From positions 2,910,501-2,974,500 of the forward strand of contig NZ_CP073581.1 of assembly GCF_018200035.1 (NCBI RefSeq): a stretch of DNA of 64,000 nt, read 5' to 3'. Position 1 is the first letter of the stretch, and every line of letters begins with the position of its first letter. The notes under the pieces were generated by a model. It had not been told where the DNA came from, searched no databases, and saw only the letters and a program-made list of their open reading frames with translations. Below, piece by piece: positions 46,139 to 54,114 of the stretch. Position numbers and translations under genes: made by a program. This DNA is from Sulfitobacter albidus (GTDB taxonomy: Bacteria; Pseudomonadota; Alphaproteobacteria; Rhodobacterales; Rhodobacteraceae).

Positions 46139-46224
46139 GCCCAGGTGGCGGAATGGTAGACGCGCTAGCTTCAGGTGCTAGTACTGGCAACGGTGTGGAG
46201 GTTCGAGTCCTCTCCTGGGCACCA
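46139..46224 (+). tRNA. tRNA-Leu (CAG anticodon)
   Basis: This 86-nt class II tRNA has acceptor strands GCCCAGG and CCTGGGC, anticodon stem CTAGC/GCTAG around the loop TTCAGGT (anticodon CAG), a long variable arm and a T-arm with TTCGAGT. The CCA end is encoded. It is intact and serves as the attachment site of the island that follows: its last 16 nt form the start of the 43-bp direct repeat. Confidence 0.96.
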
Positions 46225-46251
46225 AAATACTCCCGATAAGATACTGATTTT
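46209..46251 (+). repeat. attL: left copy of the 43-bp direct repeat at the tRNA-Leu 3' end
   Basis: The 43 bases from CCTCTCCTGGGCACCA (tRNA 3' end, 46209-46224) through GATTTT (46251) recur exactly at 53015-53057. Imperfect similarity continues beyond both copies into integrase sequence. Confidence 0.93.
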
Positions 46252-46306: not shown

Positions 46307-47690
46307 ATGACGACCCGTTTTGCCATGAAGTACGTTAAACAGCTCAAAGATGGTTCCTACAAGTATCGGCGGCTGGTGCCAAAGCCGCTCCAGACAGTGC
46401 TTGGAAAGAAGGAATTTAGCCGCCATTTAGGCCGGACCGAAGAAGAGGCGCTGAAAGCTTATCCCGCCGTCCATGAGCACTTTGAGCGTGTCGTCGCAAA
46501 CGTACCTGCTGAAACGGGAGCGGCGGAAATAGAGGCGCTCAAACAGCAGATCAACGCACAATTTGAAGAGCTTGGTTTACGGCGCCACTGGGCAAAGTCA
46601 GGCTGGAACGAACAAGCAGCCCGTGAGGAGGAAGCAGATCGAATCCTCGCAAAATACCCCATTGACGAGGAAACCGGCAATCCAGACCCGGATGACGTGT
46701 CCCTTGCAGACCGCCTGATGGTCACGGCCTTGCTTGAAAGCCCTGCGGCGATTGAGGTCACCTACACCATAAGCGACGTGTTTTCCCACTACATCGAACA
46801 CTGGAAGCGGGACCAAGACGACGAAGGAAAGATCAAGAGATACGAAGACAGAGTAAGACGGATGCAAAGGCATCTGCTGTCTATCGTTGGTTCAGACATC
46901 CCGATCACCGAGTTGACCCGCGACCACGCTCGCAAGCTACGCGACCGACTGCGAGAACAGCCGTCGCAGAGTGGGGACGGGAAGGCGGCCTACGGCACGG
47001 TGAAACGGAACTTCAATACCACGAAAGCGGCGATAAACCACGGCATCAAAGAGTTGGATATTGTCATGGTAAACCCGCTTAACGGCATCGAACTAGGAAA
47101 GCCGCCGATAAATGCTCGCGACTTGAAGCACTCCCTGCCGCCGGAGGTCATCGCGGCGATGTATCGAGAATTGTCCAACAACCAAGTGCTGCTCGATGTA
47201 TGGACGCTCATGCATCATACGGGGGCACAGAACGCGGAAATTCTCGGCCTAAGGAGCGATGACGTTTATCTGAACGACCCCGTACCGCATTTCGAAATCA
47301 GGCCACGAGAAGGACGGTCAGTTAAAGAGGGCGTTCGGATCAGGAAACTCCCGTTGGTCGGGAAGGCTCACGACACGATGAGAAGGTTGATCGAAAACAC
47401 CGCACACGGAGAATACCTTTTTGGCAAAATATGGCCCGACAGACAAACACTCGAATTTTAGCGTGCTCTGCATGAAAAGGCTTCGGAAGCATACAGAGGA
47501 CAAACGGCACACCATCTACAGTCTGCGGCACGGGATGAAGGACGCTCTGAGGGCTGCAAATGTATCTCTATATGTGCAAAATGCCATCATGGGGCATACG
47601 GGGGAAAACCGTGTCTCTGACGCCTACGGATCAGCCGTTACGCTAGAAGAGAAGCACCGGGCATTGTTGTCTCTGAGATTTGTGGCGTAG
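46307..47690 (+). pseudogene. Tyrosine site-specific integrase, frameshifted
   Basis: The N-terminal part (46307-47461) has the KYVKQLKDGSYKYRRLVPKP start seen in DUF6538-type integrases, a SAM-like core-binding domain, and the beginning of the catalytic domain. The frame stops at TAG 47459-47461. The rest (YSLRHGMKD, AIMGHTGENRVSDAYGS with the catalytic Tyr) continues in the +1 frame from about 47460 to TAG 47688-47690. The first catalytic Arg is also missing: HTGAQNAEILGL has Gln where HTGxR is expected. Both changes argue for an inactive gene. Its place next to the tRNA and in the outward-to-inward orientation is normal for island integrases. Confidence 0.88.
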
Positions 47691-47840: not shown

Positions 47841-47913
47841 TTCATAATTCGGCCTCTTTAGTGAAGGACAGGAGCCGCTTGTGGTTTCCGCTTCCGATCC
47901 AAAGGAGGCCCCG

Positions 47914-49305
47914 ATGATCGCTTTACAAACTACCCCTACAGCCCCCCGGACGATCCCCCCGGTGGATCACATTGAAACCGACACCGATGCGTGGCGAGAT
48001 ATGTTGAACGCCGCACGGATGGCTACCTTCGATCACCACCTAAAGCCCGAGACACCCCAGCCTTGGCTTGACGAGCTGGTGTCCCGAACACTGACCCACG
48101 AGGCGGCCAATGATCCCCGAACAAGGAAGCGTCGGAAGACCGACGCACAGGCGTTCAGGGAGGCCGTAGCGGCCTTTGCAGTCGATCTGGTCAGGGAAAG
48201 CGCCAACGAGGCCTCACAAGGCTTCCTGTATCGCCCTGTGTGCCGTGCGGAGTTGAAAGCCACCTTCGTCTCCCGAACCAACTTCGAGGTTTTGACAGCC
48301 TATTGGGAGGCGATGGGTTGGCTGGAGAAGGTCAATCACACTTATCACTATATTGACTTCGACGGCGAGAAGACTGACCTTGTGGATTACGCCAAAGCGG
48401 CGCGCTACAGGGCCACGCCTGCCTTCCTGACCTTGGCCGCAGACCACGGGATCACACCCGAAACGGTGGCGCAGTATTTCGAGCGATCCTTCAAGGATTC
48501 CGCCTTGGTTCAAGTTCGGGAAAGCAAGGGCGGTAACTACCTGCGGCCCCAGAAAGGCAAGCTGGTGAAATGGGCCGACCACAAAATCAAACCGCACCTC
48601 AAACAGATACAATACCTGAACACGATGATGCAGGAACACAACTACAGCCTGACCTCCCCACCAGCAGTCAGACGGCTGTTCAACTGTTCGGATCGGGAAG
48701 ACTTCGACCTCGATCTGGGAGGGCGGCTATACGCAGTTTCGGACGACAACTGGAGGAACATGCCCAAGGCGGAACGCGCCAAGATCACCATCGACGGATG
48801 CGCAACGGTGGAGGTGGACGTGAAGGCCAGTCACCTGTCGATCCTTTACGCCCTTCACGGGCAGACCTTGGTGTATCGGCCTGACCCCTACTACCTCAAG
48901 GGCGTCCCCAGATGGATCGTGAAAGGGCTGGTCGTGGCGTGGATGGGCAGAGGTAAACAGCCTTCAAGATGGCCCCAGAAGATGATCGAGGAGTTCCACG
49001 AAAAGGAGGGCAAGAAGCTCGGCCGGGTTCACCGCGCAAAGGACATTGGAGCTGCGATGTTGGCACGGCATCCGGTTCTGGGAGAGTTGAAGCCGGACGT
49101 TCTGGATTGGGCAAACCTACAATACGAGGAGGCACAGTGTTTCATCGGTGCGATGATGAAGCTGCACGAGGATAGTATACCATCTTTGCCTGTTCACGAC
49201 AGCCTGCGTGTCAGGGTGGACGACCTGGAGAGGGTCAGTGAGGTGCTAAAGGCAGAGTATCGGTCGCGACTTGGGTTCGTCCCTGTATTGGAGATGAACC
49301 TATAG
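47914..49305 (+). CDS. Putative replication protein with single-subunit polymerase-like motifs
   Basis: This 463-residue protein is not one I recognise by name. The start at ATG 47914 is set by a perfect AAAGGAGG (47901-47908) with a 5-nt spacer. The C-terminal half shows three motifs in the order of the Pol I/T7 RNA polymerase palm and fingers: a motif A-like VEVDVKASHLSILYALHGQ, a motif B-like PRWIVKGLVVAWMGRGKQP (R-x3-K with a downstream Gly) and a motif C-like SLPVHDSLRVRVDDLE. The N-terminal half is helical with winged-helix-like stretches. There is no exonuclease domain. A plasmid or satellite replication polymerase is a reasonable hypothesis; a coincidental resemblance remains possible. 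Confidence 0.6.
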   Translation: MIALQTTPTAPRTIPPVDHIETDTDAWRDMLNAARMATFDHHLKPETPQPWLDELVSRTLTHEAANDPRTRKRRKTDAQAFREAVAAFAVDLVRESANEASQGFLYRPVCRAELKATFVSRTNFEVLTAYWEAMGWLEKVNHTYHYIDFDGEKTDLVDYAKAARYRATPAFLTLAADHGITPETVAQYFERSFKDSALVQVRESKGGNYLRPQKGKLVKWADHKIKPHLKQIQYLNTMMQEHNYSLTSPPAVRRLFNCSDREDFDLDLGGRLYAVSDDNWRNMPKAERAKITIDGCATVEVDVKASHLSILYALHGQTLVYRPDPYYLKGVPRWIVKGLVVAWMGRGKQPSRWPQKMIEEFHEKEGKKLGRVHRAKDIGAAMLARHPVLGELKPDVLDWANLQYEEAQCFIGAMMKLHEDSIPSLPVHDSLRVRVDDLERVSEVLKAEYRSRLGFVPVLEMNL

Positions 49306-49880: not shown

Positions 49881-50426
49881 ATGATGATCGGATACGCACG
49901 GACTTCGACACTGGAACAGAAGGCATCGCTAGAGGCGCAGAGAGAGGCGCTGGAAGCCTTGGGGTGCGAAAGGGTGTAGGAGGAGCAAATAAGCTCTGTC
50001 GCGCACAGGAGCGGCCTTACAGACGCCATAGGCTACGCCCGTGAGGGGGATACGCTTGTGGTGACGAAGCTCGACCGTCTGGCCCGTTCTGTGCGGCACC
50101 TTGGGGAGATCATCGAAGAGCTAGACAGCAAAGGCGTTGGGCTGCGGATCGTTGATCTTGGATTGGATACGTCCAATGCGACCGGGAAGCTGATGCTGAA
50201 TGTGCTGGGGTCGGTAGCACAGTTTGAGCGGGAGATGATGCTGGAACGCCAGCGAGAAGGCATCGCCAAGGCGAAGGCGGAGGGAAAATACAAAGGCAGG
50301 AAACCGACAGCGATGGCGAAGGCTGATGAGGTGTTGGCGCTGCTGTCTGAGGGGAAGAGTAAGCGGGAGGCGGCGCGTTTGGCGGGGGTGTCGGAGCGGA
50401 GCGTTTATCGGATAGCGGTAGGGTGA
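49881..50426 (+). pseudogene. Serine recombinase (resolvase/invertase), in-frame amber codon
   Basis: This 181-codon gene has the resolvase N-terminal catalytic domain: MMIGYARTSTLEQ with the nucleophilic Ser, then LVVTKLDRLARSVRHL with the catalytic Arg residues, NVLGSVAQFEREMMLERQRE on the E-helix, and a C-terminal helix-turn-helix (SKREAARLAGVSERSVYRIA). TAG at 49977-49979, after residue 32 (LGCERV), interrupts it; the sequence continues in the same frame with EEQISSVAHRSGLTDAIGYA, where relatives carry an aromatic residue at the stop position. AAGGA lies 9 nt before the ATG. It is a single nonsense mutation with no other decay. Confidence 0.88.
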
Positions 50427-50852: not shown

Positions 50853-51932
50853 ATGAGCGAGGCGACCAAATACGCAGGACGGCGAGTCAACGCGTATGCC
50901 TTCTTCGAACCGATCTACGATCCCGAGCTTCTAAAAAGTCTGCAACAAAACGATTTTGGAAAAGGAAGCTGGGATTTTTCACAACAGAAAGGTCCCTGTA
51001 GGTTCGTCTTCAATGGCGATGACCTCAAAAAGGATTATGCCAAGATTGATGATATTACCTTCTTAGAATGCGATTTTTTCGGTGTTCAAGGTAAAGCAAT
51101 CACATTCAAAAAATGCAAATTTGAGAAGTGTGACTTTCGAGGTGACTTTACAAACGTGAAATTTTCGAACTGTACTTTCGATACTTCGTCCCTTTCGCTT
51201 GTTAAGTTTCACAACTGTCAGTTCAGAGACTGCAAATTTGTCAATATAGGCGTTTCTGGGAATGAAACTCAGATTATTTTGTCCGACATAACAAATCCAG
51301 CCGAATTCCTTAAAGCCGCATCAACAAATCTTCGTCATCTCCCTGAGGGGACGACAGAAGAGTACCAGCTACTTCGACTGGAGCAAACCAAGGCGACACT
51401 TGCTCGAGTGATTTTGAGCAATCAGTCAACTGAAGGTTCCGACTTGTCCTATTATGACGCTGTAAAAGCCTCTACTCTTTACGGAACTCGTTCTCGCGGA
51501 GTTGCCACAAAACTGAAACTACCACGATTTGATGATCAAGAGGGGCGAGAGAAGCGTGCAGCCATGGTGGAACTGAGAGTACACGTAGCTTCATTCCTCA
51601 CTCAAGTAAGTACCTCATGTGAGTTTTTGATCCTTCAAGTAGCTGGTCTTGCCAATGCTTGGGGCAGAAGCATTTTCCGAGTAATTTCGATTGGAGTTTT
51701 CTTAGTTCTGATAGCTGGTTGGCTGCGCAGCAAGTTTCTCTGTAATCCATTTATGGAGAGCCTCGTCGATGCTGCTGAGGTGTTCCTCCTATTTGGCTAC
51801 ACGAAACATAGCGTGCCTCAAGACGTGCTACATACAGACGCGCTGAATTTAGGCACCGCCTTTCTGGGCTTGTGTTGGTTTGCAGTCGCAGCCGCAACTA
51901 TCGTCAACCGAGTTACAAAGGTTCGTGGCTGA
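50853..51932 (+). CDS. Pentapeptide-repeat protein with C-terminal two-helix channel-like domain
   Basis: This 359-residue protein has a run of pentapeptide-like repeats at about residues 55-130 (FLECDFFGVQG, FKKCKFEKCDFRGDF, FSNCTFDTSSL, FHNCQFRDCKFVNI), which should form a right-handed beta-helix. A charged helical linker follows (about 165-260). The C-terminal 100 residues contain two membrane helices (VISIGVFLVLIAGWL and GTAFLGLCWFAVAAATIV) flanking a short re-entrant-like segment EVFLLFGYTKHS, laid out like the pore unit of two-TM potassium channels, though the filter TxGYGD is not conserved. GAGGTG precedes the ATG by 6 nt. The nucleotidyltransferase gene follows at once. Base composition is AT-rich relative to the chromosome. 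Confidence 0.75.
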   Translation: MSEATKYAGRRVNAYAFFEPIYDPELLKSLQQNDFGKGSWDFSQQKGPCRFVFNGDDLKKDYAKIDDITFLECDFFGVQGKAITFKKCKFEKCDFRGDFTNVKFSNCTFDTSSLSLVKFHNCQFRDCKFVNIGVSGNETQIILSDITNPAEFLKAASTNLRHLPEGTTEEYQLLRLEQTKATLARVILSNQSTEGSDLSYYDAVKASTLYGTRSRGVATKLKLPRFDDQEGREKRAAMVELRVHVASFLTQVSTSCEFLILQVAGLANAWGRSIFRVISIGVFLVLIAGWLRSKFLCNPFMESLVDAAEVFLLFGYTKHSVPQDVLHTDALNLGTAFLGLCWFAVAAATIVNRVTKVRG

Positions 51933-51933
51933 A

Positions 51934-52626
51934 ATGAGCGCTTGTGTTCTCTTGTTTGGCAGTATGGCTCGCGGAGACAGTAGCGGTACTTCAGATGTGG
52001 ACTTGCTGATCTCGGAAGAAACAGGGAGTATAAAAAGCGAACGCGCTGGACGAGTCGAAGTTCAATACACGCCACAGAAATATCTGCTGGAAATGTCTGC
52101 GCGCGGCGACCTTTTTGCTATTCACCTTGCCTATGAAGCAAAAGTTGTCGCAGACCCAGATGGCTTCTTCGATAGCTTCAAAAAGTCTTTGAAGATAAAA
52201 TCATCCTACGCGAAAGAGCGCGAATCTGCATCTGCTCTGGCTGCTTATCTGCTAAAGCGTAAATTATCAAAACGTCAATTCCCTATAAGAAACAAAAGGA
52301 TTGCTTGGTGCGTGCGAACAATACTTATCTCGTTGCTCTTGGAGGACGGCGAGATTGTATTTTCACCAATGCGATTACAAGAGCTATACCCTGACAAGAG
52401 AATTGGCATTCTACTCAACGCGAGAAGAACAAAAATAGATATTTCTGGCTACAAAAAAGCGTTGCGATGGTTTCTTGAGGAGTTTGGCGAAGATGAATTT
52501 AGTCGGAAGGGGCTGAAACAGCTTCGCCAAGTTTTCAAACAGCAAGACAATAAGGTGGCGGAATCAACTATCCGCTCGCTTTCATGTTCTGTTGCGTTTT
52601 CACCCTACCATACTCGATCTGCATAG
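51934..52626 (+). CDS. Nucleotidyltransferase-domain protein
   Basis: The protein has the minimal nucleotidyltransferase signature VLLFGSMARGDSSGTSDVDL (GSxAR...SDxD) and a third acidic candidate in GRVEVQYTPQKYL, so the metal-binding triad looks intact. About 150 further residues are helical and basic (LKRKLSKRQFPIRNKRIAWC). The frame is open upstream to TTG 51880, and the extra residues SSTELQRFVAEM look like the usual first helix of the fold. The true start may therefore lie inside the preceding gene (TTG 51880 or GTG 51925); I list the first ATG after that gene's stop. Spacing of 1 nt indicates an operon. No HEPN partner gene is present. It may be a toxin, an AMPylating antitoxin or a signal-making enzyme. 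Confidence 0.75.
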   Translation: MSACVLLFGSMARGDSSGTSDVDLLISEETGSIKSERAGRVEVQYTPQKYLLEMSARGDLFAIHLAYEAKVVADPDGFFDSFKKSLKIKSSYAKERESASALAAYLLKRKLSKRQFPIRNKRIAWCVRTILISLLLEDGEIVFSPMRLQELYPDKRIGILLNARRTKIDISGYKKALRWFLEEFGEDEFSRKGLKQLRQVFKQQDNKVAESTIRSLSCSVAFSPYHTRSA

Positions 52627-53014: not shown

Positions 53015-53057
53015 CCTCTCCTGGGCACCAAAATACTCCCGATAAGATACTGATTTT
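53015..53057 (+). repeat. attR: right copy of the 43-bp direct repeat
   Basis: This repeats 46209-46251 exactly, including the last 16 nt of tRNA-Leu with CCA. It marks the right border of the island. Only the tRNA 3' end is present, so this is not a second tRNA gene. Confidence 0.93.
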
Positions 53058-53190
53058 CAGAATTTTCCTGAGTAGACGGCGCCGTGAGGTCTACAATCCA
53101 TGACGACACGTTCGCTATGGAATACGTCAAACAGCTCCCAAATGCATCGGCGCCCCGTTCCGCGGCCGCTCCAGACAGCGCTCGATTAGA
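53058..53190 (+). pseudogene. Remnant of the 5' end of a second integrase gene
   Basis: After attR the sequence continues to resemble the region after attL: AATTTTCCTGAGTAG, a GTGAGGTCTACAATCCATGAC leader with the ATG at 53100, AATACGTCAAACAGCTC, and CCGCTCCAGACAGCGCTC. The alignment to 46252-46418 has several small deletions, including one right after the start codon, so it cannot be translated. It is what is left of another island of the same kind that used the same tRNA. Confidence 0.75.
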
Positions 53191-53196
53191 AAGAGT

Positions 53197-54114
53197 TCAG
53201 TCCGCGTTCTCGCTGGCCGCTTCCGAGAGGCTTGAAACTGCTTGTCTATAAGCCGCGAAAAGACCGTCGGGACTGCCTTTGCTGGCCCCGGGTTCAAAGA
53301 CCACGCTTTGCAGCCCAAGAGTTTCCGCGAGCTCAATGGCTTCCCGAGGTGGTTGTGCCTCCCAGATCAGGATACGCGCGTCCAGTTCTGTTGAAAGCCG
53401 TTCCAGATCCGAAAGGTCGTCTTCGCTCGGCATGGCACCCGCATCCCATTCAAGCGACGCAATGGATAAGGAGTAGCGCCGGGCGAAGTACTGATACCGG
53501 GGGTGCGTCGCAATCATTGTGACGCCTTCCAGGCCACTCAACGCATCCTGGGCCATCGCATCCAACTCGGTCAGGTCAGAGCGCAGTTCAGTCAGCCTTG
53601 CTTCAACATCTTCCCCGGTGGCCAGATCACGCGCAACGACAGCAGCTGCAATGGCTTCCGCCTGCGCGATCGCGAGCATCGGATCAAGCCATGTATAAGA
53701 AGCGATGCCTTCATGGGAGTGCTCTCCCCCATCCCCATGACTGTGTGTGATGCTTTCGGTAACAATGAACGCGTCTTCGATCGCCGCCGAGGTATTCACG
53801 ATCCGAGACCGCGGCAGCGATACCCGATCAATCCAGGATGCGAAGCCAGCGCCGTTCAGAAGAATCATATCAGCGGACTGGATCATGCTGATATCGGCAA
53901 TCGAGGGACGCCAGAACGACGGATCGACGCCCTCGGGGACGGGGAAGACGACTTCCGCCGTGTCCTCCAAAAGGCGTTCGGCGAGAAAGTGCAGCGCTTG
54001 GTTGACCGTGACGATGCGCGGGCGATCCTGTGCGAGCGCCGCATTCACCGAGAACACGATCATCAGGGCGGCGAGAACGCCTTGTAGAACACGCACCAGA
54101 CTCAGCTCCCGCAT
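53197..54114 (-). CDS. ZnuA-like metal ABC transporter substrate-binding protein
   Basis: This 305-residue periplasmic protein has a signal peptide (ALMIVFSVNAALA) and the cluster A-I binding-protein fold: PRIVTVNQALHFLAERLLED, SIADISMIQSADMILLNGAG, a His-rich loop THSHGDGGEHSHEG, WLDPMLAIAQAEAIAAAV and MIATHPRYQYFARRYSLSIA. Of the three usual zinc histidines, the first (normally DPHxYEPS) is replaced by DPSFWRPS and the second (normally HxWLDP) by YTWLDP; the third is kept. It is the last gene of a six-gene operon and overlaps the preceding gene by 13 nt. Metal specificity is unknown. Confidence 0.82.
   Translation of the reverse strand: MRELSLVRVLQGVLAALMIVFSVNAALAQDRPRIVTVNQALHFLAERLLEDTAEVVFPVPEGVDPSFWRPSIADISMIQSADMILLNGAGFASWIDRVSLPRSRIVNTSAAIEDAFIVTESITHSHGDGGEHSHEGIASYTWLDPMLAIAQAEAIAAAVVARDLATGEDVEARLTELRSDLTELDAMAQDALSGLEGVTMIATHPRYQYFARRYSLSIASLEWDAGAMPSEDDLSDLERLSTELDARILIWEAQPPREAIELAETLGLQSVVFEPGASKGSPDGLFAAYRQAVSSLSEAASENAD

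What the first reader, a model, noticed from the sequence alone, without database searches (positions are those of the whole stretch)
50853..52626. Two-gene unit: pentapeptide-repeat/channel-like membrane protein plus nucleotidyltransferase
An AT-rich gene pair, spaced by 1 nt or overlapping, lies inside a tRNA-Leu island. The first protein joins a pentapeptide beta-helix to a two-helix membrane unit arranged like a channel pore but with a non-canonical loop (LLFGYTKH). The second is a nucleotidyltransferase with an intact GSxAR...SDxD centre. Membrane effectors paired with nucleotide-handling enzymes are common in phage defence and toxin-antitoxin systems, and small islands are a usual home for them. 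I know of no described system with this pair. A defensive role is inference.
Basis: partly seen in the sequence, partly recalled or inferred. Interest (0 to 1): 0.75.

Follow-up and report, generated by a model that had tools for sequence, protein, structure and literature searches.

The report
Hailong anti-phage defence gene pair
The two adjacent genes are a member of Hailong, an anti-phage system described in 2025 in which an enzyme makes short DNA strands that hold a membrane channel shut; the pair is real, but the system was already known.

Summary
Two intact genes, 50853-51932 and 51934-52626 (+), lie 1 nt apart in a low-GC patch of a 6.8-kb element in tRNA-Leu, bounded by a perfect 43-bp repeat. 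The novelty claim does not hold: the pair is Hailong. Gene 1 is HalA (NCBIfam NF051894, 296 bits, cut-off 250; solved HalA 9nyi, E 2e-60; predicted fold TM 0.86). Gene 2 is HalB (solved HalB 9dbh, E 5e-39; predicted fold TM 0.86), though its NF051895 score, 180.9, is just under NCBI's naming threshold of 190. The residues mutated in the solved HalB constructs (D21, D23, R164) are present, as is the C-terminal tyrosine (62 of 64 homologues). The 'non-canonical' LLFGYT loop is a HalA family mark. HalB follows HalA in 6 of 6 other loci found with HalA (4 independent). Mechanism, by homology: HalB makes oligo-dA that holds HalA closed; phage exonuclease removes it and HalA arrests the cell. In passing: of 34 genomic HalB-like loci, 8 have HalA upstream but 23 have a CapW-type ssDNA-sensing repressor, mostly beside CBASS, Pycsar or 6A-MBL genes. 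HalB-like enzymes may therefore also feed CapW; this is untested.

The parts
50853..51932 (+). halA: pentapeptide-repeat region followed by a channel domain; the effector
   Evidence: NF051894 296.1 bits, cut-off 250; PDB 9nyi E 2e-60; AlphaFold2 model against 9nyi TM 0.86/0.92
51934..52626 (+). halB: nucleotidyltransferase expected to make oligo-dA; D21, D23, E42, R164 and C-terminal Y225
   Evidence: PDB 9dbh, 9dbj, 9dbi E 5e-39 to 8e-37; model TM 0.86/0.91; NF051895 180.9 bits, under the naming threshold 190; Y225
46139..46224 (+). tRNA-Leu (CAG), the integration target
   Evidence: ARAGORN
46209..46251 (.). left end repeat (attL-like), overlaps the tRNA 3' end
   Evidence: 43 nt, identical to 53015-53057
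53015..53057 (.). right end repeat (attR-like)
46307..47690 (+). phage-type integrase in two ORFs of different frame (46307-47461 and 47421-47690); looks frameshifted
   Evidence: the two ORFs match phrog_1 positions 34-367 and 382-444; frames
47881..49305 (+). 474-aa protein of unknown function carried by the element
   Evidence: phrog_4756, unknown function, E 3.5e-23; no Pfam or NCBIfam match
49881..50426 (+). serine recombinase/invertase interrupted by an in-frame stop at 49977-49979
   Evidence: two same-frame ORFs; the second matches Pfam Resolvase and phrog_125; the first was assigned by eye only

Best explanation
The pair is a Hailong anti-phage system. HalB turns dATP into single-stranded oligo-dA, primed on its own C-terminal tyrosine. 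The DNA binds HalA and holds its channel shut in healthy cells. When a phage exonuclease degrades the DNA, HalA opens and the cell stops growing, which protects the population. Shown here: sequence, fold, key residues and gene order. Inferred by homology: every biochemical step and the phage phenotype. The system rides on a small element in tRNA-Leu whose recombinase genes look broken.
For: HalA: NF051894 296.1 bits over the cut-off of 250; PDB 9nyi E 2e-60 over residues 16-359; fold TM 0.86/0.92. HalB: three solved HalB entries, E 5e-39 to 8e-37; the first 13 fold matches are HalB chains. D21, D23 and R164, the residues changed in 9dbi and 9dbj, are present; E42 fits the third acidic position of the motif given in PMC12265719 (passage). 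A tyrosine near the C-terminus is present in 33 of 33 aligned rows and in 62 of 64 homologues. HalB follows HalA in 6 of 6 other HalA-found loci, 4 independent. On a HalB tree the window groups with the reference HalB, support 100/99. Passages in PMC12657230, PMC12657218, PMC12265719 and PMC13275509 state the mechanism.
Against: HalB scores 180.9 bits, under NCBI's naming threshold of 190. Identity to the solved proteins is only about 34-37%. The tyrosine is followed here by five more residues, whereas the reference ends at it. PADLOC-DB of 2023 has no Hailong match. No activity was measured, and the original paper was not held.
Confidence: 0.95

Rival explanations
1. A type VII (MntA-like) toxin-antitoxin pair: the nucleotidyltransferase neutralises the membrane protein by modifying it covalently (AMPylation), with no free DNA signal.
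For: HalB has a weak MntA match at its N-terminal 24 residues (20.1 bits, cut-off 60), and weak fold matches to MNT antitoxins exist (E 0.1 to 0.5). The system does behave like a toxin with its antidote.
Against: The HalB match covers the whole protein and the partner is HalA, not HEPN. The C-terminal tyrosine is conserved in 62 of 64 homologues, which an AMP transferase onto a partner would not need (inference).
Confidence: 0.03
2. A new, undescribed two-gene membrane-effector system.
For: Identity to solved members is low, about 34-37%, and HalB is under the naming threshold.
Against: Both proteins match the same two-protein system over nearly their whole length, in sequence, fold and gene order.
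Confidence: 0.01
3. A decayed Hailong pair that no longer works, carried as a passenger on a grounded element.
For: The element's integrase is split between two frames and its serine recombinase has an in-frame stop.
Against: Both hal genes are open over their full length with no stop inside and keep the tested key residues.
Confidence: 0.05

Closest known systems
Hailong (HalA/HalB), Tan et al., Nature 643:794-800 (2025), seen here only as a citation; solved proteins 9nyi, 9dbh, 9dbi, 9dbj; reference DNA Rhodobacteraceae bacterium QY30 (L005)
   Same: Two genes in the same order; HalA pentapeptide region plus channel domain with the LFGYT loop; HalB core residues D21, D23, E42, R164 and C-terminal tyrosine
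   Different: About 34-37% identity; 1-nt gap in place of a 4-nt overlap; five residues after the tyrosine; carried on a tRNA-Leu element, while the QY30 pair (L001) lies between phage structural genes
Panoptes and Clover (guard-type defence with inhibitory nucleotide signals; passages)
   Same: Works alike: a constantly made nucleotide product keeps an effector off (as those papers describe it)
   Different: Other enzymes and effectors and a cyclic or short dT product, not a homopolymer of dA; not a member
Type VII toxin-antitoxin (MntA/HepT)
   Same: Minimal Pol-beta nucleotidyltransferase core
   Different: Match limited to the N-terminal 24 residues and under cut-off; the partner is a channel protein, not HEPN

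Membership tests
Hailong | HalA effector: pentapeptide region plus channel domain, homologous to the solved HalA | tested here: met
   NF051894 296.1 against cut-off 250; 9nyi E 2e-60; fold TM 0.86/0.92
Hailong | HalB nucleotidyltransferase homologous to the solved HalB over its length | tested here: met
   9dbh E 5.4e-39, residues 4-217 of 230; fold TM 0.86/0.91
Hailong | Score over NCBIfam's HalB naming threshold (190 bits): a naming rule, not a biological feature | tested here: not met
   180.9 and 180.7 bits, although 210 of 211 profile positions are matched. I do not treat this as a defining feature
Hailong | Active-site residues (D21, D23, R164 of the solved HalB; motif [DE]h[DE]..h[DE]h) | tested here: met
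   D21, D23, E42, R164 present; mutant names from PDB titles; motif from PMC12265719
Hailong | C-terminal tyrosine that primes DNA synthesis (role recalled from the abstract of Tan et al., not from a call) | tested here: met
   Y225; 33 of 33 aligned rows; 62 of 64 homologues have a Tyr in the last 12 residues, the two misses being a 173-aa protein and the weakest hit
Hailong | halA directly followed by halB | tested here: met
   1-nt gap in the window; 6 of 6 other HalA-found loci
Hailong | Oligo-dA synthesis, channel gating, phage protection | not testable with these tools
   needs biochemistry and plaque assays
Type VII TA (MntA) | MntA model over its cut-off, with a HEPN partner | tested here: not met
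   20.1 bits, cut-off 60; the partner is HalA

The most novel reading that the evidence does not exclude
HalB is a portable DNA-writing module with at least two kinds of reader. In the window it is paired with the HalA channel. In many other bacteria a HalB relative with the same C-terminal tyrosine is encoded directly behind a CapW-type repressor, a protein reported to release its promoter when it binds ssDNA, with CBASS, Pycsar or 6A-MBL genes on the other side. There the enzyme would write the ssDNA that sets the expression of a whole defence operon.
Probability: 0.3. Interest if true: 0.7.

Novelty: new member of a known kind. Interest (0 to 1): 0.25.

Why it matters
It adds a diverged Hailong pair on a tRNA-Leu element and shows which features stay fixed at about 35% identity: the HalA loop, D21/D23 and the C-terminal tyrosine. 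The search around it also shows that the HalB family as NCBI names it includes enzymes with no HalA but with a CapW repressor beside other defence genes, a directly testable lead on what feeds CapW.

Tried and rejected
Ordinary potassium channel: no ion-channel family appears among the Pfam matches up to E 1, and the loop differs from the canonical filter (TVGYG, recalled); the solved HalA explains it. MntA antitoxin: under cut-off. PADLOC 2023 gives no match to gene 1 and only weak PDC-S09 and PDC-M05A matches to gene 2. Phage records: no HalA match in 50,697; plasmids: 1 of 72,556. The family-wide HalA search rang in 27 of 295 genomes but passed the cut-off in 3, the own genome included; the other 25 places cover at most 125 of 338 model positions, and 5 of 14 control genomes ring in the same weak way. 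Shared contig lengths of HalA and HalB protein clusters (10) were not used as proof of adjacency. Alignment A1 holds 33 of the 64 HalB hits; A2 holds 25 of the 27 HalA hits plus the window, L001 and L002. One A1 row (P0028) is the D21A/D23A crystal construct and gives the single 'A' at those columns. A frame check of the serine recombinase used the wrong frame and was discarded; that statement rests. Literature: the search for Hailong with WYL held 44 papers, of which the 20 listed are unrelated by title; the first Hailong/HalA/HalB search was swamped by names; 6A-MBL occurred in none of the 8 listed.

Full report
What is there. Two ORFs on the + strand, 50853-51932 (359 aa) and 51934-52626 (230 aa from the ATG), are separated by one base. 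A GAGGTG stretch precedes the first ATG, as a ribosome-binding site would; the 1-nt gap suggests translational coupling (inference). Their GC is 45%, against 62% for the window. They sit in an element at tRNA-Leu(CAG), bounded by a perfect 43-nt direct repeat, 46209-46251 and 53015-53057.

What the genes are. NCBIfam names the first protein 'anti-phage Hailong system effector protein HalA' (296.1 bits, cut-off 250). Its best solved relative is 9nyi, HalA with oligodeoxyadenylate (E 2e-60, residues 16-359); the next hit has E 2e-4. An AlphaFold2 model from 28 aligned sequences (pLDDT 86) matches 9nyi at TM 0.86/0.92, and the next PDB match by E-value has TM 0.20. The second protein's solved relatives are three HalB entries (E 5e-39 to 8e-37), the next hit having E 0.18. 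Its model (pLDDT 91) has HalB chains as its first 13 fold matches, the best at TM 0.86/0.91. It scores 180.9 bits with the NCBIfam HalB model, below the naming threshold of 190, though profile positions 1-210 of 211 are matched. I report this as a shortfall in a naming rule.

Residue tests. The residues changed in the constructs 9dbi (D21A/D23A) and 9dbj (R164A) are D21, D23 and R164 in the window too. In the alignment of 33 rows, position 164 is R in 23 and K in 10; position 42, E in the window, is E in 22, S in 6 and N in 5. The C-terminal tyrosine, whose priming role I recall from the abstract of Tan et al. 2025 (not held), is Y225. It is present in 33 of 33 aligned rows, and 62 of all 64 homologues have a Tyr in the last 12 residues (the misses are a 173-aa protein and the weakest hit). 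In the window five residues follow it; the reference ends at it. The loop LLFGYTKH is a family mark: G315 in 28 of 28 rows, Y316 in 26 of 28 (one F, one truncated row), T317 in 25 of 28. The solved HalA has LFGYT too.

Neighbourhood and spread. HalA is followed by HalB in 6 of 6 other loci found with HalA: a Sulfitobacter pontiacus plasmid (L004), two further genomes of the window's family over the cut-off (L039, L040) and three viral-collection contigs (L066-L068). L039 and L066 stand for the same QY30 system and L067/L068 differ at 11 of 1844 bases, so there are 4 independent cases. In the window's family 3 of 295 genomes pass the HalA cut-off, the own genome included. A DNA search with the whole element in 60 genomes, 35 of the 59 others being congeners, gave no match over halAB outside the own genome; at most five candidate places a genome were scored there, so this absence is not exhaustive. 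On a tree of 38 HalB rows the window groups with the reference HalB (two identical rows) and two more HalA-paired rows, support 100/99.

How it most likely works. I read passages, not whole papers. Hailong makes single-stranded DNA oligomers that suppress its effector, and phage exonuclease activity de-suppresses it (PMC12657230). Hailong senses anti-defence activity with an ssDNA decoy (PMC12657218). Oligodeoxyadenylate is its negative regulator (PMC12265719). [quoted passage not shown] The window's pair has the parts for this; the biochemical steps are inferred.

The element. The integrase lies in two ORFs of different frame, 46307-47461 and 47421-47690, which match successive parts of phrog_1. 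The serine recombinase at 49881-50426 is interrupted by an in-frame stop. A 474-aa protein matches only a phage family of unknown function. The element thus looks grounded, while halA and halB are open. Just beyond the right repeat, 53087-53200 resembles the start of the integrase gene (92% over 26 nt, 71% over 65 nt), which suggests the remnant of a second, related element.

The side lead. A scan of GTDB species genomes with the HalB alignment gave 34 loci, all through one pattern around WCVRT, so the sample is not a census. HalA lies just upstream in 8 of 34. In 23 of 34 the gene just upstream is instead a protein of about 305 aa, 52-100% identical to that of L010, which matches solved CapW (9c5g E 1.5e-58; also 7tb5, 7tb6 and BrxR 7t8k). 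The other three have only a fragment (L009, by eye) or none (L036, L038). On the far side of the CapW gene, divergent, are: a phospholipase and CD-NTase of CBASS type in 9 (L007, L010, L013, L014, L018, L019, L020, L026, L030); another CD-NTase match in 3 (L008; L011 as a 161-aa piece; L015 at 25% identity); 6A-MBL genes in 8 (L012, L016, L021, L024, L025, L027, L029, and L033 weakly at 29%); a Pycsar cyclase in 2 (L031, L037); none found in L023. The names come from PADLOC and NCBIfam runs on 10 proteins each; the rest were assigned by tblastn to seven of those. NCBIfam's CBASS lipase and cGAS scores (195 and 126) were under their cut-offs of 200 and 150, and NCBIfam matched neither the CapW-like protein nor the Pycsar cyclases. 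Two of the 23 HalB relatives were scored with the HalB model and both pass (191.8 and 209.2). All 23 keep the DxD motif and a tyrosine near the C-terminus. Against DNA synthesis by them: position 42 is S in all 23, while it is N in seven of the eight HalA-paired genome loci and E in the window and the reference. PMC13373217 (passages) states that CapW/BrxR represses transcription until it binds ssDNA. A possible ssDNA-making enzyme beside an ssDNA-sensing repressor is a sensible but untested pairing. The listings and the passages showed no account of it, but most subscription papers, the Hailong paper among them, are not held.

Verdict. A real and complete Hailong pair: a diverged new member of a known kind, of low interest in itself, with a stronger lead in its relatives.

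Noticed in passing
L007, L008, L010-L016, L018-L021, L023-L027, L029-L031, L033, L037, about 5.0-6.7 kb of each locus (L013 about 0.2 kb earlier): In 23 of 34 HalB-like genomic loci there is no HalA; a CapW-type WYL repressor lies directly upstream, with CBASS, Pycsar or 6A-MBL genes divergent to it in most. These HalB relatives keep DxD and the C-terminal tyrosine, but have S in place of E at position 42. They may make the ssDNA that CapW senses.
   Followed up: partly
L001 3925-5684 and L002 3934-5666: The QY30 reference Hailong pair (L001) and a second pair (L002) sit among genes that look like phage head and tail genes, as a carried cargo would; the phage genes were judged by eye from the ORF lists.
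   Followed up: no
window 53087-53200: Just outside the right end repeat lies a stretch resembling the first bases of the element's own integrase gene (92% over 26 nt, 71% over 65 nt), perhaps the remnant of a second related element at the same tRNA.
   Followed up: no
window 46307-47690 and 49881-50426: The integrase is split between two frames and the serine recombinase carries an in-frame stop, so the element looks unable to move by itself.
   Followed up: partly
window 47881-49305: A 474-aa element protein with no Pfam or NCBIfam match and only a phage family of unknown function; one distant plasmid relative in Sphingomonas.
   Followed up: partly
L048 2-973, - strand: A partial HalB-like match (E 7.5e-16) near a weak pentapeptide hit in a genome of the window's family; could be a distant variant.
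   Followed up: no
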